Of a stretch of 64,000 bases of DNA, positions 3,754-56,326 are shown piece by piece. The DNA is from an uncultured Lactobacillus sp. Lineage in GTDB: Bacteria; Bacillota; Bacilli; Lactobacillales; Lactobacillaceae. The notes under the pieces are model-generated. The model did not search any database. It was not told where the DNA came from and saw only the letters and a program-made list of their open reading frames with translations. The stretch spans positions 1 through 64,000 of the forward strand of contig CANOGU010000012.1 of NCBI GenBank assembly GCA_947565635.1, in the 5' to 3' direction. A program made the position numbers and the translations under genes. Numbering within the stretch: the first letter of the stretch is position 1; every line of letters starts with the position of its first letter.

Positions 3754-6096
3754 ATGACACAGAATGAACGAGTTTTAGCTGATGTTTATGAAACATTTAG
3801 ACATAATCCTCAAGAACAATATGATGTAGATCAACTTGAAAATGATTTAAGTCGCAATCAAAGATTAAACTTTCCAGATCTTGTTAAGGCTCTAACTTTT
3901 TTAGAGCATAGTAAAAAAATCGTAACTGATGGTCAGGGAAAGTATCAATTGAATCAGTTAAATACAGTTGCTGAAGGTACTTTTAAAGCAAATGATAAAG
4001 GATTTGGTTTTGTTAGATTTGATGATGAAAGTATGGAAGATGCTTTTATTGATAAACATAATACTAAGTTCGCTATTGATGGAGATCATGTTAAGGTAAA
4101 GATTATTGCTGGTGCTAACCCATGGAATGGCAAAGGACCAGAAGGTCAAATTGAAGAAATTACGGAACGTGGTGTCGAAACCTTAGTTGGAGAATTTCAT
4201 CCTTATTCTGATGAGCTTGTAAAATCTAGTGGCTTTTATGGATATGTCGTTAGTGAAAATCGTAAATTAAAGAAGTATAAAATTAATATCACTGATAATG
4301 GTGTTAAGCCCCAAATGGGCGATATGGTTAAAGTTTCTATTACTAAGTATCCTGATGAAGATCAACCTGATGAGATGCAAGGTGTAGCTCTTCTCACAAT
4401 TGGTAATAAGAATGATCCTGGCGTAGATATTATGTCAATTGTTGTTGATAATGATATACGTACTGATTGGCCAGAAGAAGCTATGGACCAGGCAAATAGT
4501 ATTCCTGACCATGTTACTGAAGAAGAAAAGGCTAAGCGTGTAGATATTACTGATCAACCTGCAGTAACAATTGATGGGGATGATTCAAAAGACTTTGATG
4601 ATGCTGTTGTAGTTTGGAAATTACCTAATGGAAATTACCATTTAGGTGTGCACATTGCAGATGTTTCTCACTATGTAAAAGAAGGGACTCCATTAGATAA
4701 GGAAGCCCTTGCACGAGGAAATAGTACTTATTTAGTTGACCGCGTTATTCCAATGTTGCCATTTAGATTATCAAATGGTATTTGTTCACTGAATGAAGGT
4801 GTAGAACGTTTAGTACTTTCCTGTGATATGGAAATTACGCCAGAAGGTAAACGTGTTGGCTACCGTATTTATCCGTCGGTAATGAAGTCTCACGGACGTT
4901 TAACATATAATAATGTTAATAAGGTTCTTGATCCAAATAATCATGAAAAATTAGAACAAAAGTATTCTGATGCAGCTCCGATGCTTCATGAAATGGCAGA
5001 TCTACATAATATTTTGTATAAGAAACGTCATCAACGTGGAGCAATTGATTTTGAAGAACCAGAAGCAAAAATTATAGTTGATGATAAGGGTAAGCCAACT
5101 GACATTGTTCTTCATGAACGTGGAACAGCAGAAAAAATGATTGAATCGTTCATGTTAATGGCCAATGAAACTGTTGCGGAAGACTACTATAAGAAACATG
5201 CACCATTTCTTTATCGTGTTCATGAGACTCCCGATCAAGAAAAAATGCAATCATTCTTTGAATTTGTTAGCGCATTTGGCTTAAATGTAAAAACAGATCC
5301 AAATGATGTAAAGCCAAAGGATTTACAAAAGATTGTTGCCAAAACTGAAGGAACTCCAGAGGAAGCTGTTGTTCAAATGATGATGCTTCGTAGTTTGAAG
5401 CAAGCACATTATTCTCCAGAACCCCTTGGTCACTTTGGCTTGGCTGCTAAGTACTATACTCACTTTACTTCACCAATTCGTCGTTATTCTGATTTGATGG
5501 TTCACAGAATGATTCACGAATATGCTGATCAAAATATGGATGAAGGTGTACAAAAGCACTTTAAGTCACAACTTCCTGATGTTGCAGAACAAACTTCAAC
5601 TCAAGAAAGAAAATCAATTGATACTGAACGTAGTGTCAACGATTTGAAGATGACTGAATTTATGGCTGATAAGGTAGGTCAAACTTTTGATGCCATTGTT
5701 TCTTCAGTAACTAGTTTCGGTATGTTTATTCAATTACCGAATACTGTTGAGGGTTTGATTCATATTTCTAATTTGAATGATGATTATTATAATTTTGATG
5801 AAAAATCATTAACTTTAACTGGACGTAATTCACATAAACAATTTAAGATTGGAATGCCAATTAAAGTTAAGTTGATTAGAGCTGATGTGGAGCAACATCA
5901 GTTAGACTTTGAAATTTATGATCCGAATGCACCAAAACGTCCTCAAAGAAGTAATAATCGTGGAAAACGTAGCTTTGATAAAGGACGTAAAAATGGTGGA
6001 AACAAGAGAAATAACAATACTTCTCACGTAAATAATGGCCATAATTTTAAGATTCGTCATCGCAAAACAACAGCTGTCAAGTCCGATAAAAAATAA
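3754..6096 (+). CDS. rnr: Ribonuclease R
   Basis: 3'-to-5' exoribonuclease that degrades structured RNA and, with tmRNA-SmpB, non-stop mRNAs. The 780 residues are typical. Order: an N-terminal winged-helix-like region (about 1-70), cold-shock domains, the RNB catalytic domain with the DSKDFDDA Asp cluster at about residue 278, the [13 protein letters not shown] motif at about 573, an S1 domain at about 645-725, and a basic low-complexity tail rich in Arg, Asn and Lys. It is followed by smpB after 14 bases, so nuclease and tmRNA adaptor are co-transcribed. Confidence 0.97.
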
Positions 6097-34437: not shown

Positions 34438-34801
34438 GGGGATGTTTTGGGATTCGACAGGCGTAGATTCGCGTTGACTGCGATTCGTAGGTCACGTCTA
34501 CGTTAAAAACGTCACAGTTAAATTATAACTGCAAATAACGAAAATTCTTACGCAGTAGCTGCTTAGTCAGCCTGCGTGATCCAAAGATGGATTGCTCGTG
34601 TCTATCTACGGGTCTTACCATTTAACGAGCTACGTTTAACTACTTACCTTAATAGTTAGAAATAAGATTCTTAGGTTAGTTTTGATAGTTTAGCCCTGTT
34701 ATATGGCGTTTTATCAAAGCGAAATTTAAGTAATGTAACTATGATCGTAGAGGTTAGCGACGAAATACGTTTGGACAGGGGTTCAATTCCCCTCATCTCC
34801 A
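34438..34801 (+). ncRNA. ssrA: Transfer-messenger RNA (tmRNA)
   Basis: Starts GGGGATGTTTTGGGATTCGA and ends GGTTCAATTCCCCTCATCTCC, so the acceptor stem GGGGATG pairs with CATCTCC and the T-arm is complete. The internal reading frame begins at GCA 34531 and ends at TAG 34564, coding ANNENSYAVAA, a standard AA-ended degradation tag. The CCA end is not encoded after A34801. It works with SmpB (6111) to rescue stalled ribosomes. Its 3' end is the phage attachment site. Confidence 0.96.
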
Positions 34802-34803
34802 TA
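34776..34803. other. Probable attL (tmRNA 3' end)
   Basis: The prophage integrase gene faces the tmRNA gene and ends less than 90 bases from it, and no chromosomal gene lies between, so the crossover must fall in the tmRNA 3' end, as with many tmRNA-using tyrosine integrases. The exact core cannot be fixed without attR, which is outside the window. Confidence 0.7.
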
Positions 34804-34812
34804 GATAAGAAT

Positions 34813-34848
34813 AAAAACCGCTCTATATCAACATTTAGAGCGGTTTTT
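34813..34848. terminator. Bidirectional terminator, tmRNA / int
   Basis: AAAAACCGCTCTA and TAGAGCGGTTTTT pair perfectly (13 pairs) around a 10-base loop. It lies inside the prophage border, ends the tmRNA transcript and also the leftward integrase transcript. The phage therefore supplies a terminator to the gene it disrupts. Confidence 0.9.
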
Positions 34849-34886
34849 ATTTGTTTTTGATACAATTTTGATACAATAAACGATTT

Positions 34887-36005
34887 TTAAATATTTAATG
34901 AGTTCATATAACTTCTGATATTTTCCATGCCTTCTTGGGTGGCATGAGTATAATGTTCAGTCATTTCTATACTGTTATGACCCATGACTGCTTCTACGTC
35001 GGTTCTTTCTTGATTTTTGTTAAGAGTAGCATAGGTATGTCTAAAACCGTGTATGGTAATTTTTTTAAGGGATTTATCAGCATTATAAATTGCTTGTAAC
35101 CATCTATCGGGTTTTGAAAGATTAACGTAATTATTACTAATGCCATGAAAAATTATAGGGCAAATAATTTTTTGCTGTTTTCGATATTCTTTAAGAACGC
35201 TAATCATATGTTCAGTAAGTGGAATTGGCCGATTTGAAGTTAAACTTTTAGGTGTTTGAACAATTAATTTATTATCTATTCCTAAAGCTAAAGTTTTTGT
35301 GATGGAAACAGTTTTGGCTTCCCAGTCAATATCGGACCAAGTTAAAGCTAATGCTTCGGATTTTCTAATTCCTGAAGTAGCTAGCAAGAGAAAATAAGTA
35401 TAGCTACGATAATTTTGTTTTTTTGCAACTTTTAAAAATTGCTTTAATTGATCTAATGTATAGAAATTTTTTTGAATATTTCTACGACGTCTTTTTGTCT
35501 TTCGAGGAATAATAACTGCATTAACTGGATTATATATTTTTTGACAGTATCTTAGTGCGGCCCCATAATCATAAATTTGACTAAATCGATTAATGACTTC
35601 TTTGTACTTAACTAAATTTTTATAAAGTGAGTTAACCCAAGACTGAAATTTGGCAGTATCAATTTGATCTATATAATCATTCCCAAACCATGGCTTGATA
35701 TGCACCTTATAATTAATCGCTGTTTTATTAGCTGTAGATTGTTTAACAGTCTCTTTATAGGCTTCAAACCATACTTTATAAACTTCATCTACTGTATGTT
35801 GTTTAGGCTTAATGTAGCCTTTAACGCCTTTAGCGATAAGTTCATCATAAACTTCCTTAGCTTCATTATAAGTAGCAAATTTTCTTTTAGTGATTTGGAT
35901 AGGTTGCTCGGTTACAGGATCTTTACCTAAATAAGCATGGAACATGTAACGAACATCACCATTTTTTAATTTATATTGTTTTATGTGTTTATCTCTTTTT
36001 GGCAT
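34887..36005 (-). CDS. int: Tyrosine integrase of the prophage
   Basis: 372-residue phage integrase. It has an N-terminal AP2-like/arm-binding region (about 1-60), a SAM-like core-binding domain (about 65-150) and the catalytic domain with Arg in SGIRKSEALALTWSDI (about 213), Lys in the beta hairpin near 240, HGFRHTYATL (His and Arg, about 319), MGHNS (His) and the nucleophile Tyr in TEHYTHAT (about 352). AGGAGGT precedes the ATG. The target is the tmRNA 3' end, judged by position. Confidence 0.96.
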   Translation of the reverse strand: MPKRDKHIKQYKLKNGDVRYMFHAYLGKDPVTEQPIQITKRKFATYNEAKEVYDELIAKGVKGYIKPKQHTVDEVYKVWFEAYKETVKQSTANKTAINYKVHIKPWFGNDYIDQIDTAKFQSWVNSLYKNLVKYKEVINRFSQIYDYGAALRYCQKIYNPVNAVIIPRKTKRRRRNIQKNFYTLDQLKQFLKVAKKQNYRSYTYFLLLATSGIRKSEALALTWSDIDWEAKTVSITKTLALGIDNKLIVQTPKSLTSNRPIPLTEHMISVLKEYRKQQKIICPIIFHGISNNYVNLSKPDRWLQAIYNADKSLKKITIHGFRHTYATLNKNQERTDVEAVMGHNSIEMTEHYTHATQEGMENIRSYMNSLNI

Positions 36006-50689: not shown

Positions 50690-52117
50690 TTGAAGACAAT
50701 TGATTTTGGCAATGATAGAGTGACTCATAATAATCGTTTTATTTATCCTGTAGGACAAAGAATGTCAATAAATGAAATTTTTGGTTTCATCTCTTACAAT
50801 GAAAATACATTAAAACCTCAATATCGTAAAAATATGGAGTACTATTTGGGTAAACATAGTATTCTTGATGATCCAAATAATAAGACAGATAATATTAATA
50901 ATAAATTAATCGATAATAAAATTAAGCCGTTGGAAGATTCATACAACGGCTTTTTTGCTGGCATCCCTCCAGTAATTTCTACTGAAGATAAAAATATTAA
51001 TAAAATTTTACAAGATTGGAATAATGAAAATTCTTTCCAAGATGAGCTTAACGAAATAAGTAAGCAAGCAGATATTTTTGGACGGTCTGTCGTGTTTATT
51101 TATCAAGGCGAAGATAAACTACCACACCTTACTCATTCAAGTCCAGAACGGGCATTTATTATATATGATGATACGGTTGCCCATAATCCATTAGCTTTTG
51201 TTCGATATGAATTAGATGACACAAAGAATTGGACCGATGCAAAAGGCCAAGTGCAATATGCTGATAAGTTTTATATTTTTGAAGGTATGAATCTTGCCGA
51301 AGATCATATAACTAATTCAGAAGGGGTTAATCCATATGGTTTAGTTCCTGCTGTTGAATTTTATGAGAATGAAGAACGGCAATCAGTTTTTGAACAAATC
51401 ATTACACTTCAGGATGAATTGGATCATGTAATGAGTCAGAAAGCCAACCAGATTGCTTATTTTGATAATGCGTATATGTTTATGTTCAATATAACCCTCG
51501 ATGAAGATGATGATGGTAATCCTAAGTTTGATTTTAAGAACAATCGGTTAATTTATGCGCCAACTGTAGATCCAAATAGTGATCCAAAAGTTGGCTTTAT
51601 TCAAAAGCCCGATGCTGACGGAATGCAAGAAAACATGATTGATCATTTGCAAAAGTCAATCTATGAGAATACCGAGATTGCTAATTTACGTGATGAAAAC
51701 TTTGCTAATAATGCCAGTGGTGTAGCAATGCAGTATAAATTGCTTTCAATGCAGAATAAAGCAGATAGTAAAGAGCGTAAATTTACTAAAGCATTGAAGC
51801 AAATGTATAAAATTGTTTTTCAAACTTTGTTTGATAATGATAGTCAAAGAGAGCAATGGTCTACTTTGAAGTTTCATTTTACTCGTAATTTACCAGATGA
51901 TATTTCATCAATGATTTCTGCTGCTAAAAATGCTGAAGGAATGGTATCCCAACAAACTCAACTATCTTTATTACCATTTGTTAAAGATCCGCAAGCTGAA
52001 ATTGAGCAAATCAACAAAGAAAAACAAGAAAATATCAAGAATGCACAACAAGCAGCTGGATCATTGCCTGATTATTTGAATTCTGGTGAAGATGATGCCA
52101 AGTCTGAAACAGAATAA
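50690..52117 (+). CDS. Portal protein (SPP1 gp6-like)
   Basis: Dodecameric portal through which DNA enters the head, 475 residues. Start is TTG 50690 after GGTGGTGAG. Portal_6/SPP1-type features: YNENTLKPQYRKNMEYYLGK at the start, NNKLIDNKIKPLEDSYNGFF, a clip/stem region rich in Asp, and NFANNASGVAMQYKLLSMQN (about 340-360), followed by a C-terminal helical crown with Gln and Glu repeats. Overlaps the MuF gene by about 23 bases. Confidence 0.94.
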   Translation: MKTIDFGNDRVTHNNRFIYPVGQRMSINEIFGFISYNENTLKPQYRKNMEYYLGKHSILDDPNNKTDNINNKLIDNKIKPLEDSYNGFFAGIPPVISTEDKNINKILQDWNNENSFQDELNEISKQADIFGRSVVFIYQGEDKLPHLTHSSPERAFIIYDDTVAHNPLAFVRYELDDTKNWTDAKGQVQYADKFYIFEGMNLAEDHITNSEGVNPYGLVPAVEFYENEERQSVFEQIITLQDELDHVMSQKANQIAYFDNAYMFMFNITLDEDDDGNPKFDFKNNRLIYAPTVDPNSDPKVGFIQKPDADGMQENMIDHLQKSIYENTEIANLRDENFANNASGVAMQYKLLSMQNKADSKERKFTKALKQMYKIVFQTLFDNDSQREQWSTLKFHFTRNLPDDISSMISAAKNAEGMVSQQTQLSLLPFVKDPQAEIEQINKEKQENIKNAQQAAGSLPDYLNSGEDDAKSETE

Positions 52118-53798
52118 GGCCTATTGGGATGCAAGAATTAAAGCTGAGAAAGCATGGCAAGAACTGGCTAAAAAGGACATGGAAAAATACAACCAACATA
52201 TAGTTGGTATGTATAATCAGACAATTTCTGATATAAATCAGCAGATAAAGGCAGATTTAGCTTTATCAGAGGGTAAACTTGTTAAAGCTGATGCAATGAA
52301 AGAGTATGAATCATTAGCTAAACGAGCTGTTGATAAAGCTAAGGAATTAAGAGCTAAAGGTAAGCATGTAACCCGTAAGGATTTTAGCGAAGACGTTAAT
52401 AATCGTTTAAAAGTTTATAATGCGACAATGCGAATTAACCGTAATGAGATTTTAAAAAGTAAAATCGGCGCTAGATTGGTTGAGTTAGGTGTGGAACAAG
52501 AACAGAGTTTAACTAACAAACTCTGGAATGATTATGTTAGGGAAAAAGAACGTCAAGCTGGTATTCTTGGAATTACTGCTAAATCAAACTTATGGACTTC
52601 AAAAGAAGTTCAAGAACAAATAGCCGGTCAAATAGCTGGTGCTAATTTTTCAAAAAGAATATGGGCTGATATAGATGGGTTGAAAGGCCAATTAGATGGA
52701 CTTATATCTAGTGCAGTTATTCGGGGTGAGTCTCCGATTAAGACGGCTAAATGGCTAACTGGAATGGTGTCAGCAAGCATTACTAATCAAGAGTATGCAG
52801 CTGAACGACTGGCGAGAACTGAAACTGCAAGGATTTATTTCACTGCTGAACAAAACTCACTTATGAAATACGGCTACAAATTCGTTAAATGGATTGCAGA
52901 AGGTAATGCTTGTAAAGCATGCCGTGAGATTGCAACTAAAAGCACAGAATACGGTGATGATGGAGTATATCCGATTAGAGAAGTACCTAATATCCCAGTG
53001 CATCCCAATTGTATGTGTTCTATTTCTGCTTACTGGGTAGATGATAATAAATTAAAAGAAGAAGATACTTCAATTGATAATATATCTATATCAAACACTA
53101 AAGAATTCACACAAGCAGTAAGTAAATTAGGAATAACGGAAGTAGAGTCACTTAATAAAATTGATCCTAAAATGTTAGAAAGGATCTATGAAACTATTAA
53201 TAATGAATTTCAAAAACATCCACAACTCAAAGGCTATTTGACTGTTATAAAAGGTGGAAATAGACCTAAAAGTGCTGATGTTGCGTATGTTGCAAGCTAT
53301 GTTAAATATGATAGTGGTAATAATGAAAATGCTAAATATAGATATTATGCAGAGTTAAATTTAAATAAAGCTAAATTGAGTAATATAAACGAGATTAATC
53401 AATTAGTGAAGGAAACTGTTCAGGAGCATTGGTGGTCAAAAAAAATCGATTATACTGGATTAATAAAACATGAAATGGCTCACGCATTAAATTCACGTGC
53501 TAATTATGCAGAAATTTTTGGTAATGATCCAATAAGATTATTGAACTATAATGAAGCTAAAAAACTAATAAAAGCAAGAAAAGATAATTATTTTGCTAAT
53601 GATATTTTATTAGATACTTTTGAAAAGCTAAAGGTTAAGCCTACTAAAGTTAATGTTCAAAAGTATATAAGCAAATATGCAGGAAAAAATATTGAAGAAG
53701 CATTTGCAGAAGCATATTCGGATGAGTCAAAAGCTGAATTTAGTAGAACTTTTGATAAATTACTGAATGAACGTTTAAAGAAGGTGTTTAGACAATGA
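52095..53798 (+). CDS. MuF head protein fused to zincin-like domain
   Basis: 567 residues from ATG 52095. Residues about 1-315 are the SPP1 gp7/MuF minor head domain: helical start, TARIYFTAEQNSLMKYG, and the Cys motif ACKACREIA...HPNCMCSISAYW at about 271-308. A linker of about 40 residues leads to a C-terminal domain (about 350-567) unlike ordinary MuF proteins, containing YTGLIKHEMAHALNSRA (HExxH, His459, Glu460, His463) and EEAFAEAYSDE near 534-544 as a possible third zinc ligand. C-terminal toxin domains on MuF proteins are known in Firmicutes prophages; a metallopeptidase effector injected with the DNA is the inference. The gene ends overlapping a 58-codon gene. Confidence 0.9.
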   Translation: MPSLKQNKAYWDARIKAEKAWQELAKKDMEKYNQHIVGMYNQTISDINQQIKADLALSEGKLVKADAMKEYESLAKRAVDKAKELRAKGKHVTRKDFSEDVNNRLKVYNATMRINRNEILKSKIGARLVELGVEQEQSLTNKLWNDYVREKERQAGILGITAKSNLWTSKEVQEQIAGQIAGANFSKRIWADIDGLKGQLDGLISSAVIRGESPIKTAKWLTGMVSASITNQEYAAERLARTETARIYFTAEQNSLMKYGYKFVKWIAEGNACKACREIATKSTEYGDDGVYPIREVPNIPVHPNCMCSISAYWVDDNKLKEEDTSIDNISISNTKEFTQAVSKLGITEVESLNKIDPKMLERIYETINNEFQKHPQLKGYLTVIKGGNRPKSADVAYVASYVKYDSGNNENAKYRYYAELNLNKAKLSNINEINQLVKETVQEHWWSKKIDYTGLIKHEMAHALNSRANYAEIFGNDPIRLLNYNEAKKLIKARKDNYFANDILLDTFEKLKVKPTKVNVQKYISKYAGKNIEEAFAEAYSDESKAEFSRTFDKLLNERLKKVFRQ

Positions 53799-53971
53799 TT
53801 TTAGCATTACCAAAGGAATTAATTGGAAACTTAGATTTTTCATATGATTTGCCGGTCTTGAAAGACAGTGCAACTGATAAACAGAAAGTAATTTATGCTG
53901 ATTTTATTAAGCAATATATAACCGATCAACATAATGAAGATGATTTATTTATTAAACACGGTAAAAAATAA
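53795..53971 (+). CDS. Small protein after MuF, possible immunity
   Basis: 58 residues, overlapping the MuF-zincin stop by 4 bases (ATGA). Reads MILALPKELIGNLDFSYDLP and then KQKVIYADFIKQYITDQHNEDD; acidic-neutral, soluble, no known motif. Immediately followed by a terminator. Position and coupling suggest a partner of the C-terminal MuF domain, such as an immunity protein or regulator, but the sequence itself shows no such function. Confidence 0.65.
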   Translation: MILALPKELIGNLDFSYDLPVLKDSATDKQKVIYADFIKQYITDQHNEDDLFIKHGKK

Positions 53972-53974
53972 AGT

Positions 53975-54001
53975 AAACGACTATTTAATAGTCGTTTTTA
54001 T
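53975..54001 (+). terminator. Terminator inside head gene cluster
   Basis: AAACGACTAT and ATAGTCGTTT pair perfectly around a 3-base loop, followed by TTATTTT. A terminator between portal/MuF and scaffold is unusual in a late operon. The next 92 bases to the scaffold gene hold no gene, and no clear promoter was found there. Confidence 0.8.
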
Positions 54002-54093
54002 TTTGCCTTTTTCCTTGTGTGCAGGCTTAAAAGAACACCATGTGTTAGTTCCCCGAAACTTTAAAACGTGAGTTATAGAAAGGACATTTAATT

Positions 54094-54660
54094 ATGCCAA
54101 AAGATGATGTGAAAGAGACAGTTGCTACTACTGAACCTGATAAAGCTGCAGCATCGAGTTCAGAAAGTAAAGATAAGCTAGAAAAGATTGATGCTGATTC
54201 ACTTGTAAAGCCTTATATTGATCGAATTACTAAAGAGCAAGCTCAAAAGAATGACTATAAAACTAAATATGAAGATGCTATGAAAGAAATTGAACAATTA
54301 AAGTCTGATAAAGGTAAGTCAGCTAAGGAAATCACTGAAGAAGATGAACGTACTAAAGAAATTGAGTCATTAAAAAAACAGAATGCTGATTTAAATGCTC
54401 AAATTAAACGTTCAAATGATATTAAAGAAGTTAACGGAATATTTAAGAAAGCAGATTTAAATATCGATGAAGATGTTCTTAATATGGTCGTTAATGAAGA
54501 TGCTACTCTTACTGTTTCAAATGCAAAAGCAATTATTAATTTAGTTAATAAGGCACGTGAAGAAGGAAAAAATTCAATCCTTAAAGGAAAAACTCCTACA
54601 TCAAGCGGAAGTAAGATTAAAGCTCCACAAGATGATTTAAAGCGTGCTTTAGGTTTATAG
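54094..54660 (+). CDS. Capsid scaffold protein
   Basis: 188 residues, helical and highly charged, with a disordered acidic start (TTEPDKAAASSSESKDKLEK), a long coiled coil (about 45-110, KTKYEDAMKEIEQLKSDKGK) and the C-terminal KIKAPQDDLKRALGL that likely contacts capsid. Placed directly before the major capsid gene. Related in layout to DUF4355 scaffold proteins. Confidence 0.85.
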   Translation: MPKDDVKETVATTEPDKAAASSSESKDKLEKIDADSLVKPYIDRITKEQAQKNDYKTKYEDAMKEIEQLKSDKGKSAKEITEEDERTKEIESLKKQNADLNAQIKRSNDIKEVNGIFKKADLNIDEDVLNMVVNEDATLTVSNAKAIINLVNKAREEGKNSILKGKTPTSSGSKIKAPQDDLKRALGL

Positions 54661-54675
54661 AAAGGAATTTAGAAT

Positions 54676-55611
54676 ATGCCAACAAATGCAGAAACTAAAG
54701 GCTTCAACTATGTAACAAAAGATGGAGATTTATTAGATCAAAAGATTACTGCAGGTTTATTTACTGCAGCTTTAGGAACGCCAGAGGTTGATTTAGTCAA
54801 TGGAGGACGTTCTTTTACATTAAAGACTATTAGTACTAGTGGATTACAAGCTCATACCCGTGGAAAAGGCTTTAATTCAGGTACAATTTCAGATGAAAAG
54901 ACTATTTATACTATGGGACAAGACCGAGATGTTGAATTCTATCTTGATCGACAAGATGTAGATGAAACAGATAATGAATTAGCAATGGCTAATATTTCTA
55001 ATGTATTTATTACTGAACACGTTCAACCAGAATTAGATTCTTATCGTTTTTCAAAAATTGCTACTTCATTTGATAATCTTGATGGTAACGATACTGAAGG
55101 TGCTTTGTTAGCTAAGACTCATAAGACTGAGGAAACTTTAGACGCAACAAATGCTTACTCACAATTAAAAACAGGTATTGGAAAAGTACGTAAGTATGGT
55201 ACTCAAAACTTAGTGGGTTATGTGTCTAGTGAAGTGATGGATGCATTAGAGCGTTCAAAAGAATTTACTCGAAATATCACTAATCAGAATGTGGGAACTA
55301 CTGCACTTGAATCACGCATTACTTCTATTGATGGTGTGCAATTGATTGAAGTGTATGAATCTAACAGATTCATGACCAAGTACGATTTTACTGATGGTGC
55401 TAAGCCGACTGAAGATGCTAAGGCGATTAACTTCTTAGTTGTTGCAAAACCAGCAGTTATTTCAATTGTGAAAGAAAATGCAGTATTTTTATTTGCTCCA
55501 GGTCAACATACTGACGGTGATGGATATCTATATCAAAACCGTTTATACCATGATTTATTTATTAAAAAGCATAAACGTGATGGTATTTTTGCATCAGTAA
55601 AAAAAGCATAA
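54676..55611 (+). CDS. Major capsid protein
   Basis: 311 residues in the zero frame. HK97-fold type of the N4-gp56/phage capsid class common in lactobacillus phages: VDLVNGGRSFTLKTISTSGL, MGQDRDVEFYLDRQDVDETD (about 77-96), EHVQPELDSYRFSKIA and the end LYHDLFIKKHKRDG. A site at the 3' end (GTAAAAAAAG) should let some ribosomes shift -1 and add 23 residues. Confidence 0.93.
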   Translation: MPTNAETKGFNYVTKDGDLLDQKITAGLFTAALGTPEVDLVNGGRSFTLKTISTSGLQAHTRGKGFNSGTISDEKTIYTMGQDRDVEFYLDRQDVDETDNELAMANISNVFITEHVQPELDSYRFSKIATSFDNLDGNDTEGALLAKTHKTEETLDATNAYSQLKTGIGKVRKYGTQNLVGYVSSEVMDALERSKEFTRNITNQNVGTTALESRITSIDGVQLIEVYESNRFMTKYDFTDGAKPTEDAKAINFLVVAKPAVISIVKENAVFLFAPGQHTDGDGYLYQNRLYHDLFIKKHKRDGIFASVKKA

Positions 55612-55647
55612 CCCCGCAAGGTAATAGGCAACCTACTCCAGGCGGGG
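55599..55647 (+). promoter_or_regulatory. -1 frameshift signal of capsid gene
   Basis: Slippery heptamer A-AAA-AAA (55599-55605) in the zero frame GTA AAA AAA GCA TAA, a 6-base spacer, then a stem CCCCGC (55612-55617)/GCGGGG (55642-55647) with an inner AGGT/ACCT helix. The zero-frame stop is 4 bases after the heptamer. Geometry is that of classic -1 programmed frameshifting. Confidence 0.82.
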
Positions 55648-55676
55648 AAGATAAGAAAGAAGATCAAAATGAATGA
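55605..55676 (+). CDS. Frameshifted C-terminal tail of capsid protein
   Basis: In the -1 frame, reading continues from AGC 55605 as SITPQGNRQPTPGGEDKK then EDQNE and stops at TGA 55674, giving a 333-residue capsid form. The tail is Pro/Gly/Gln rich and acidic, like exposed decoration tails. An analogous longer capsid form made by -1 frameshifting is known for Lactobacillus phage A2. It overlaps the next start by 8 bases. Confidence 0.75.
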   Translation, partial: SITPQGNRQPTPGGEDKKEDQNE

Positions 55677-56022
55677 TGCATTAGATGACCAACTTGAAAA
55701 GCTTAAAACAGCTCTTCAATTGACTGATACTAAACATGATGATCTTCTAAAGCTGTATCTTGAAGATGCTACTGACTTTTTAAAATTAAGGTTATCCGTT
55801 ACTGGCGTAATCCCAACTGAAATGCTTGCTATAGTTCGTGGAGCAGCTGTTAAGAAATTTAATCGTTTTAAAAACGAAGGAATGGCTAGTTATTCTCAAG
55901 ATGGGGAATCGATTACATTTAATTCTTCTGACTTTGACGAGTGGGAAGATGAAATAAATCAATGGCGTAAAGATCATACTGGTTTAAGTCGAGGAATGTG
56001 GGTGAATCCTTATGAGGTATGA
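55669..56022 (+). CDS. Head-tail connector (gp6/gp15-like)
   Basis: 117 residues beginning ALDDQLEKLKTALQLTDTKH, the helical pattern of phage gp6-like/SPP1 gp15-like adaptor proteins that sit under the portal. Overlaps the capsid frameshift tail upstream and the next gene by 11 bases. Confidence 0.82.
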   Translation: MNDALDDQLEKLKTALQLTDTKHDDLLKLYLEDATDFLKLRLSVTGVIPTEMLAIVRGAAVKKFNRFKNEGMASYSQDGESITFNSSDFDEWEDEINQWRKDHTGLSRGMWVNPYEV

Positions 56023-56326
56023 CACAATAGTTAGCTTCTTTAGGGATACAGATGGAAAGTATAATCCAAGAACCCATAAACATAATAGTGAACCTATCTT
56101 TGTCGATTCAGTCTTTGCAAATATCACTGATTTAGGGCTTAAAAACCAAGTACAGCTGCTTGGTGGGATTAAACAGGGATCTAAAATAGTTAGAATGACT
56201 GAAAATTTAGATGAAAACTGGGATTATATGACAATTGATGGTGATGACCGTAAATATCGTTTTATTAGTTCACTCAATGTTCTTAAGGGTCATGCAATGA
56301 TAGTAGGTGAAGACGTTGGGAATTGA
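56012..56326 (+). CDS. Head closure protein (gp16-like)
   Basis: 104 residues with a beta-rich pattern (VSFFRDTDGKYNPRTHKHN; WDYMTIDGDDRKYRFIS). Position between connector and HK97-gp10-like protein matches SPP1 gp16-type stopper proteins. Assignment mainly by order. Confidence 0.75.
   Translation: MRYDTIVSFFRDTDGKYNPRTHKHNSEPIFVDSVFANITDLGLKNQVQLLGGIKQGSKIVRMTENLDENWDYMTIDGDDRKYRFISSLNVLKGHAMIVGEDVGN

What the first reader, a model, noticed from the sequence alone, without database searches (positions are those of the whole stretch)
52095..53971. MuF head protein with HEMAH C-terminal domain plus coupled 58-codon gene: a candidate toxin/immunity cassette
Seen: after a normal gp7/MuF domain (Cys motif at about 271-308) the protein goes on for about 250 residues with IKHEMAHALNSRA and EEAFAEAYSDE, a gluzincin-like HExxH plus distant Glu. 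A 58-codon gene overlaps its stop (ATGA) and a private terminator follows, splitting the late operon between MuF and scaffold. Known: Firmicutes prophage MuF proteins carry diverse C-terminal polymorphic toxin domains, and metallopeptidase toxins exist in that world. Inference: the domain is a phage-delivered peptidase effector and the small gene may protect the lysogen. Ordinary MuF proteins end near residue 320.
Basis: partly seen in the sequence, partly recalled or inferred. Interest (0 to 1): 0.9.

Follow-up and report, generated by a model that had tools for sequence, protein, structure and literature searches.

The report
Phage head protease with swappable antidote gene
A phage sitting in a Lactobacillus genome fuses a predicted protein-cutting enzyme to a head protein and pairs it with a tiny gene that moves with it and also turns up alone in other bacteria, which looks like an injected toxin with its antidote.

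Summary
The gene at 52095-53798 encodes a MuF (SPP1 gp7-like) head domain plus a zincin-like domain; H459, E460, H463, Y528, E535 and E539 are invariant in a 16-sequence alignment. A 58-codon gene overlaps its stop. Domain and small gene behave as one exchangeable cassette: a prophage 92% identical from 53984 onward carries a different one. Among 96 Lactobacillaceae MuF loci the small-gene profile hits behind 8 of 10 zincin-type MuFs (a ninth weakly) and 1 of 86 others, a 3' remnant. Small-gene divergence follows the zincin more than the MuF backbone. New here: in 397 genomes, 11 small-gene homologues lie away from any detected MuF, one 54% identical to this gene, as expected of orphan immunity genes. 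Best reading: a MuF polymorphic effector (published class; 20% of 191 MuF toxins carry metallopeptidase domains) with an antidote family I did not find described. Not shown: protease activity, toxicity, packaging, neutralisation, fold (structure tool unavailable). The terminator is not private to the cassette.

The parts
52095..53042 (+). MuF / SPP1 gp7-like head domain (residues 1-316)
   Evidence: phrog_115 1e-64; TIGR01641 5e-7, below cut-off; 76% DNA identity to phage JNU_P11 ends at 53042
53043..53099 (+). linker and left cassette boundary; a 47-bp stretch 53001-53047 is 87% identical to Lj928, after which the sequences differ
53100..53798 (+). C-terminal zincin-like metallopeptidase domain (residues 336-567) and stop codon
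   Evidence: PF15890 4.2e-6; homologues; profile match to solved gluzincin chains
53469..53483 (+). HEMAH (H459, E460, H463): predicted zinc ligands and general base
   Evidence: invariant in 16 of 16 aligned sequences, the window's included
53676..53711 (+). Y528 ... E535 ... E539: conserved Tyr, predicted third zinc ligand E535 (Tyr+7) and second Glu
   Evidence: invariant in 16 of 16; same spacing in the solved gluzincin aligned
53795..53971 (+). 58-codon small gene, candidate immunity (antidote) gene; ATGA overlap with the MuF stop
   Evidence: family with other zincin-linked small genes: leave-one-out E=0.004 for this one; phrog_19570 3.9e-7; no Pfam match
53975..53997 (+). terminator-like hairpin, 10 pairs then T-rich tail
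   Evidence: sequence from 53984 shared with prophages that carry other cassettes
54094..54660 (+). scaffolding protein gene, right-hand context outside the cassette
   Evidence: PF14265 4.4e-17, phrog_2932 8e-49
34438..36005 (.). tmRNA gene (34438-34801, +) and tyrosine integrase (34887-36005, -): left end of the prophage, shows a temperate phage

Best explanation
The locus is a toxin-immunity cassette of the MuF polymorphic-toxin kind. The MuF domain would carry a C-terminal zinc metallopeptidase into the phage head (a few copies, via the portal), from which it would enter the next cell with the DNA and cut one or more host proteins. The 58-aa protein, made from the overlapping gene, would bind the peptidase and keep it inactive in the cell that builds the phage, and in lysogens if it is expressed there. 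Shown here: domain make-up, conserved catalytic residues, co-exchange of the two parts as a block, chromosomal copies of the small gene without the toxin. Inferred: packaging, injection, proteolysis of a host target, neutralisation.
For: Catalytic signature invariant in 16 aligned sequences; profile match to solved gluzincins, best E=3.4e-5, with HExxH, Tyr and Glu in register. The cassette 53048-53983 is replaced between prophages with conserved flanks: Lj928 92.3% over 53984-56031, G257 92.1%, G192 81.7%. Near-identical pairs: the G138 cassette locus against G056, G087 and G138's own second MuF locus share both breakpoints, with 946 bp against 315, 43 and 43 bp between them. Small gene in 8 of 10 zincin loci (a ninth, L152, weak) and 1 of 86 others, Fisher p=3e-9; 6,2,1,54 and p=2.8e-6 after collapsing MuF domains at 70% identity. 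The single exception is a 3' remnant beside a short MuF. Mantel zincin-small r=0.80, p=5e-5; given the MuF backbone r=0.69, p=7.5e-4 (12 loci). Zincin-linked small genes in loci not used for training: L074 68 bits, L157 58.5 bits. Orphan copies: 11 of 24 places at E<=1e-3. Window against G171: 0-4 differences per 100 bp over 53200-53899, against 22 and 25 in the two preceding windows. Precedent: MuF toxins with tested immunity proteins (Apk2/IapK, PMC12226406; Bxa/Bsi, PMC11699363; passages).
Against: No activity or toxicity data. The small genes were first collected as neighbours of zincins, so the 8-of-10 side of the table is partly circular (leave-one-out, run for eight loci, addresses this; the 1-of-86 side is not circular, though one of the 86, L072, ends 27 bp after its MuF stop and could not show a downstream gene). 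One zincin MuF, G157, has no small gene downstream. The pneumococcal phage small gene shows no pairwise similarity to this one. L152 and L025 small genes match only weakly. MuF distance given zincin distance also keeps some relation to the small gene (r=0.31, p=0.04). The profile search that finds gluzincins also lists an unrelated designed helical protein at E=1e-4, so its E-values are not decisive. No promoter above background for the small gene.
Confidence: 0.74

Rival explanations
1. The injected peptidase is not a toxin but an early host-takeover or anti-defence enzyme (or a lysis-lysogeny modulator); the small protein is its chaperone or keeps it quiet during assembly.
For: Jamet et al. 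suggest that peptidase-type MuF proteins may be mild and steer lysogeny or counter defence (PMC5576092, passages). The same anatomy would be expected.
Against: A chaperone does not by itself explain small genes standing alone in chromosomes with no MuF or clear zincin in the 6-10 kb around them.
Confidence: 0.13
2. The domain is a head-maturation or self-processing protease acting inside the capsid, and the small gene is a structural or regulatory helper.
For: PHROG 595, labelled 'head maturation protease', matches residues 15-533 of the translated query at 3e-34, but it also matches the MuF part of the short JNU_P11 protein at 1.6e-36; the locus lies between portal and scaffold.
Against: Only 10 of 96 MuF loci carry this domain, 38 of 96 have an extension under 90 aa; near-identical head modules exist with and without it; orphan small genes lie outside head modules.
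Confidence: 0.07
3. The small gene is an independent cargo gene whose pairing with the zincin is only physical linkage within a recombining segment.
For: It sits inside a mosaic hot spot, and other small genes occupy the same place.
Against: Pairing holds across MuF domains only 21-42% identical to the window's and from Lactobacillaceae to Propionispora, and small-gene divergence follows the zincin after allowing for the backbone.
Confidence: 0.06

Closest known systems
MuF polymorphic toxins of temperate phages (Jamet et al. 2017, PMC5576092; passages and sections 7-8 read)
   Same: MuF N-terminus, C-terminal enzyme domain, small ORF right downstream, temperate phage of Firmicutes; [quoted passage not shown]
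   Different: In the parts I read no immunity family for the metallopeptidase type is named, and the word orphan does not occur in the main text; the supplementary tables could not be opened, so this domain may be listed there.
Apk2-IapK-Aph1 (PMC12226406) and Bxa-Bsi-BAH (PMC11699363), passages read
   Same: MuF toxin with an adjacent small protein that blocks the toxin by binding.
   Different: Other enzymes ((p)ppApp synthetase, ADP-ribosyltransferase); those pairs were tested at the bench. Their immunity proteins were not compared with this one by sequence.
Gluzincin metallopeptidases: Pfam PF15890 Peptidase_Mx1, PF06167 M90; solved relatives are the anthrax lethal factor catalytic domain and, weakly, myroilysin
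   Same: HExxH, Tyr, and Glu seven residues after it, in register.
   Different: Remote: 3 of 14 members reach PF15890 at E<=0.1 and 4 of 14 PF06167. Superfamily resemblance only; nothing suggests action on animal cells.
Zincin peptidases of polyvalent and polymorphic toxin proteins (PMC5512222, PMC3482391; passages read)
   Same: Zincin domains fused to structural or secreted carriers as predicted effectors.
   Different: The window protein matches no toxin-peptidase model of Pfam or NCBIfam above its cut-off.

Membership tests
MuF polymorphic toxin | N-terminal MuF/gp7 domain in the packaging module next to the portal gene | tested here: met
   portal 50690-52117 upstream, scaffold downstream
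MuF polymorphic toxin | temperate phage | tested here: met
   integrase PF00589 5.6e-22, next to tmRNA gene
MuF polymorphic toxin | variable C-terminal enzyme domain exchanged between otherwise similar MuF proteins | tested here: met
MuF polymorphic toxin | C-terminal domain shared with other polymorphic-toxin carriers | tested here: inconclusive
   class-wide search (9 of 398 genomes incl. own): of 8 other loci 5 were viewed: two HExxH lipoprotein-like ORFs (L024, L026), one phage-like zincin ORF (L025), a fragment and an unrelated ORF; no classical toxin carrier
MuF polymorphic toxin | small downstream gene | tested here: met
   53795-53971; 17 of 18 distinct zincin loci seen have a small ORF there, G157 not; the family pattern is clear in 14, weak in 2, not shown in 1
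MuF polymorphic toxin | toxicity and delivery by the virion | not testable with these tools
   needs bench work
Zincin (gluzincin) metallopeptidase | HExxH plus downstream Glu and Tyr | tested here: met
Zincin (gluzincin) metallopeptidase | zincin fold | tested here: inconclusive
   profile match to solved chains E=3.4e-5, with an unrelated chain at 1e-4; no model could be made
Pfam PF15890 Peptidase_Mx1 | score above the curated cut-off | tested here: inconclusive
   C-terminal part 26.7 bits against 25.6, full-length protein 21.5
Immunity protein of a polymorphic toxin | co-exchange with the toxin domain | tested here: met
Immunity protein of a polymorphic toxin | occurrence as orphan without toxin | tested here: met
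   11 of 24 places at E<=1e-3
Immunity protein of a polymorphic toxin | neutralises its toxin | not testable with these tools
   needs bench work or complex modelling
Head maturation protease | conserved part of the head module | tested here: not met
   10 of 96 MuF loci only; near-identical modules with and without

The most novel reading that the evidence does not exclude
The chromosomal orphan copies are a form of bacterial defence: stand-alone antidotes that neutralise a protein toxin injected by phage heads, so that a MuF peptidase arms race runs between prophages and host chromosomes. The best cases are a G299 gene (window's genus, 54% identical to this antidote, own intergenic region) and a G056 gene (44 of 48 residues identical to the antidote of a G138 prophage, in a strain whose own near-identical MuF locus lacks the toxin).
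Probability: 0.35. Interest if true: 0.78.

Novelty: new member of a known kind. Interest (0 to 1): 0.58.

Why it matters
MuF toxins are candidates for proteins that a temperate phage injects to affect the cell it enters, yet their biological role is unknown (so PMC11699363, passage). This pair gives a small, clean system in lactobacilli: a predicted peptidase, a roughly 50-residue antidote family, natural loci with and without the cassette at identical breakpoints, and chromosomal antidotes that predict which strains should be resistant. It makes delivery directly testable.

Tried and rejected
Self-processing head protease: rejected as main reading (10 of 96 loci, orphan small genes). Private terminator: rejected. 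Rfam element between 51000 and 56000: only one chance-level hit (E=0.86), not at the conserved stretch after the cassette. PADLOC defence family: none. Plasmids: no match for the domain or for a small gene of the second sub-clade. Phages: no tblastn match for the window's small gene at E<=1 or for the second sub-clade gene at E<=0.1, although the L. sakei phage carries a relative, so tblastn is too weak for genes this short. First single-protein viral-contig scan gave only a hit in an ORF that looks ClpP-like by eye. NCBIfam LegC3 on residues 11-85 (5.5e-5, 21.9 bits against a cut-off of 650) was taken as chance helix similarity. A fusion of the small-gene domain to a second small-gene family (L173) was looked for as 'polyimmunity'; the second half scores only 9.9 bits, so not claimed. 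Profile comparison of the two HExxH classes aligns only 15 columns around the motif, so they are not called one family. Weak A6 hits inside roughly 690-aa proteins (E about 0.004-0.1) were treated as chance and not followed. The hit G158:C22 (3.0e-4) was not examined. MuF matches weaker than E=2.2e-51 were not fetched, and that listing was itself cut, so the 96 loci are the stronger part of the matches; a few of the 96 are partial MuF ORFs. Of the eight extra class-level zincin loci three were not viewed.
Full report
What is there. The window is part of a 1.64-Mb assembly; an identical C-terminal domain lies in a public record of an uncultured Lactobacillus MAG. A prophage begins beside a tmRNA gene (34438-34801) with a tyrosine integrase and runs past the window end (by eye). 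In its head module, terminase, SPP1-type portal, MuF, small gene and scaffold follow each other. The MuF gene has a gp7-like domain (phrog_115 1e-64) and a further 230 residues or so.

Is the C-terminal domain a zincin? With PF15890 Peptidase_Mx1 the C-terminal part alone scores 26.7 bits against a cut-off of 25.6, the whole protein 21.5. Across 14 members Pfam at E<=0.1 gives PF06167 M90 in 4, PF15890 in 3, four other metallopeptidase families in one each, and chance families. A profile of 16 sequences finds solved gluzincins, best E=3.4e-5, with HExxH, the Tyr and the Glu seven residues later in register; myroilysin follows at 0.04, but an unrelated designed helical protein also appears at 1e-4. 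In the 16-sequence alignment only six columns are invariant: H459, E460, H463, Y528, E535, E539 in window numbering. HExxH alone occurs in 101 of 20,000 shuffles. Selection keeps the domain: dN 0.025 and dS 0.18 between window and G171, 0.08 and 1.07 between G229 and G003; the small gene of the latter pair has dN 0.16 and dS 0.80. I take the peptidase assignment as likely, not proven.

The small gene is a family. Homologous zincin C-termini were found in 11 of 397 Lactobacillaceae genomes, in an L. sakei phage and five pneumococcal phages, in Propionispora and in IMG/VR contigs. Of 18 distinct zincin loci viewed, 17 have a small ORF of 46-73 aa directly downstream; G157 has none. In G272 and G086 the zincin ORF is short (291 and 183 aa) and no MuF match was reported for those genomes, and the N-terminal part of L025 was not tested as MuF. 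Fourteen of the 17 small genes share the family pattern; L152 and L025 match weakly (12.4 and 10.5 bits); the pneumococcal one shows no pairwise similarity to this one and is included by position. Two sub-patterns recur: PK-E-x-I near the start with a later ATDKQ-like stretch (window type), and PKG-x-x-Y-W with DAP-x-W-A-K-x-E-F-x-E-Y. To limit circularity, eight zincin-linked small genes were each searched with a profile that left out their own training row and near-identical copies (L074 was not in training, so nothing was left out). All eight were found within the top 10 of 2,796 ORFs at E from 8e-20 to 4.4e-3; the window's own and its G171 copy were the weakest at 0.004. L157, from IMG/VR and not used in training, carries a clear member (58.5 bits). 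Pfam gives no significant family for these genes; PHROG 19570, of unknown function, matches 6 of 13 at E<=0.1.

Co-occurrence. From a MuF-domain search of 397 Lactobacillaceae genomes (176 with a match) I fetched the 96 strongest matches with up to 4 kb each. Zincin profile hits: 10 of 96. Small-gene profile hits: 8 of those 10 and 1 of the other 86 (Fisher p=3e-9). One of the 86, L072, ends 27 bp after the MuF stop and cannot show a downstream gene. Of the two misses among the 10, L152 has a weak member and L061 (G157) has none. The single positive among the 86, G158, is a short MuF followed by only the 3' half of a small gene, apparently a deletion scar. After collapsing MuF domains at 70% identity the table is 6, 2, 1, 54 (p=2.8e-6).

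Exchange as a block. Against prophage Lj928 the window is 92.3% identical from 53984 to 56031 and 87% over 53001-53047, with nothing similar found between; G257 (92.1%, and 85% over the same 47 bp) behaves alike, and G192 matches on the right flank at 81.7%. G257 and G192 carry a different C-terminal domain with a JAB-like GMHNHP motif (motif reading from memory). Against JNU_P11 the DNA is 76% identical over 51923-53042, where a short MuF with a different 66-aa gene (no PHROG match) takes over. Between G138's cassette locus and G056, G087 and G138's own second MuF locus, the MuF domains are 97-98% identical; DNA breakpoints are the same in all three, with 946 bp of zincin plus small gene against 315, 43 and 43 bp. 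Between window and G171 differences per 100 bp are 2-25 up to 53199 (with a quiet stretch of 4 and 2 at 52600-52799), fall to 0-4 over 53200-53899, and are 9 at 53900-53999; beyond that the ungapped comparison loses register. This fits a recent exchange of the zincin core with the small gene. In 12 loci small-gene distances follow zincin distances (Mantel r=0.80, p=5e-5) and still do so given the MuF distances (r=0.69, p=7.5e-4); MuF given zincin is weaker (r=0.31, p=0.04) (two of the 12 MuF parts, L017 and L152, were incomplete).

Orphans. In the same 397 genomes the small-gene profile has 24 places at E<=1e-3: 11 zincin-linked, 1 scar, 11 away from any MuF, 1 not examined. In the 6-10 kb regions around those 11 no MuF profile hit and no zincin hit better than E=0.0059 was found; neighbours, judged by eye, are ordinary chromosomal genes (transporters, dehydrogenases, secreted proteins), with a terminase-small-subunit-like ORF near the G157 copy. 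Nine match nearly the full model, two only its second half; the G051 and G157 copies share one site. The G299 copy, in the window's genus, is 54% identical over 50 residues, stands alone between a terminator-like hairpin and the next gene, and its genome showed no zincin (a search that missed G003 and G395, so not exhaustive). The G056 copy is 44 of 48 identical to the small gene of the G138 prophage. A wider search of 395 genomes of the order gave 14 with a match at E<=1e-3, two of them new: one beside an ORF that looks like a relaxase, one fused to a further 60 residues (only 1.5 kb on each side seen). Genes that stand alone in chromosomes are hard to reconcile with a head-assembly role and are a known trait of immunity genes in other toxin systems (polyimmunity loci, cited in PMC11699363, passage).

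Mechanism. SPP1 gp7 is taken into the procapsid in few copies through the portal, is dispensable for assembly but helps infection, and the SPP1 review proposes that toxins fused to gp7-like proteins use this route (PMC6316719, passages). Two MuF toxins have bench-tested binding-type immunity proteins (passages). By analogy the 58-aa protein would block the peptidase in the producing cell. Whether it also guards a lysogen depends on expression outside the late operon; promoter-like sites near it do not exceed shuffles (7 found, mean 7.7). The target of the peptidase is unknown.

Known or new. MuF proteins with metallopeptidase domains and small downstream ORFs are a published class (20% of 191; 89.4%; PMC5576092, sections 7-8). 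So this is a new member of a known kind. What I did not find in the listings and passages seen from searches of the open library (subscription papers and supplements not held) is this antidote family, its co-exchange with a zincin clade, and its chromosomal orphan copies.

Noticed in passing
L077, L078, L088, L094, L096, L101, L104, L107, L109 (MuF ORFs): Nine further HExxH C-terminal extensions not matched by the zincin profile; six of them aligned share HE[FM][AG]H..D ... GH..Y ... E.FAE..S. Eight of the nine loci (not L107) have a different small-gene family downstream, the one the second profile was built from. Profiles of the two classes align only around the motif.
   Followed up: partly
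L116 1031-1162: A short MuF followed by a 43-codon remnant of the second small-gene family (2.9e-6), a second apparent deletion scar.
   Followed up: partly
L173 (G1020) around 1501-1812 of the reversed locus: Small-gene domain fused to about 60 further residues with a very weak likeness (9.9 bits) to the second small-gene family; possible double antidote.
   Followed up: partly
L081 (G257), L086 (G192): At the same site related prophages carry a C-terminal domain with a JAB-like GMHNHPTNIPP motif, in G257 with another small gene behind it.
   Followed up: partly
window 53984-54093: Non-coding stretch between cassette and scaffold gene, within a segment over 92% identical to Lj928 and G257 and partly recognisable in G070; no Rfam match there.
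   Followed up: partly
L171 (G192), about 1740-2530 and 5051-5323: The orphan small gene lies between stretches whose ORFs look like translated CRISPR repeats (PPHTWRI); not tested.
   Followed up: no
L016 (G086) 1914-2108 and 2196-2381: Two tandem small ORFs follow one zincin ORF, as if the antidote were duplicated; the second matches the family only weakly (11.7 bits).
   Followed up: partly
L061 (G157:C36) and L046 (G157:C23): The one zincin MuF without a linked small gene sits in a genome that has an orphan copy elsewhere; an identical orphan protein is in G051, for which one search reported no zincin.
   Followed up: partly
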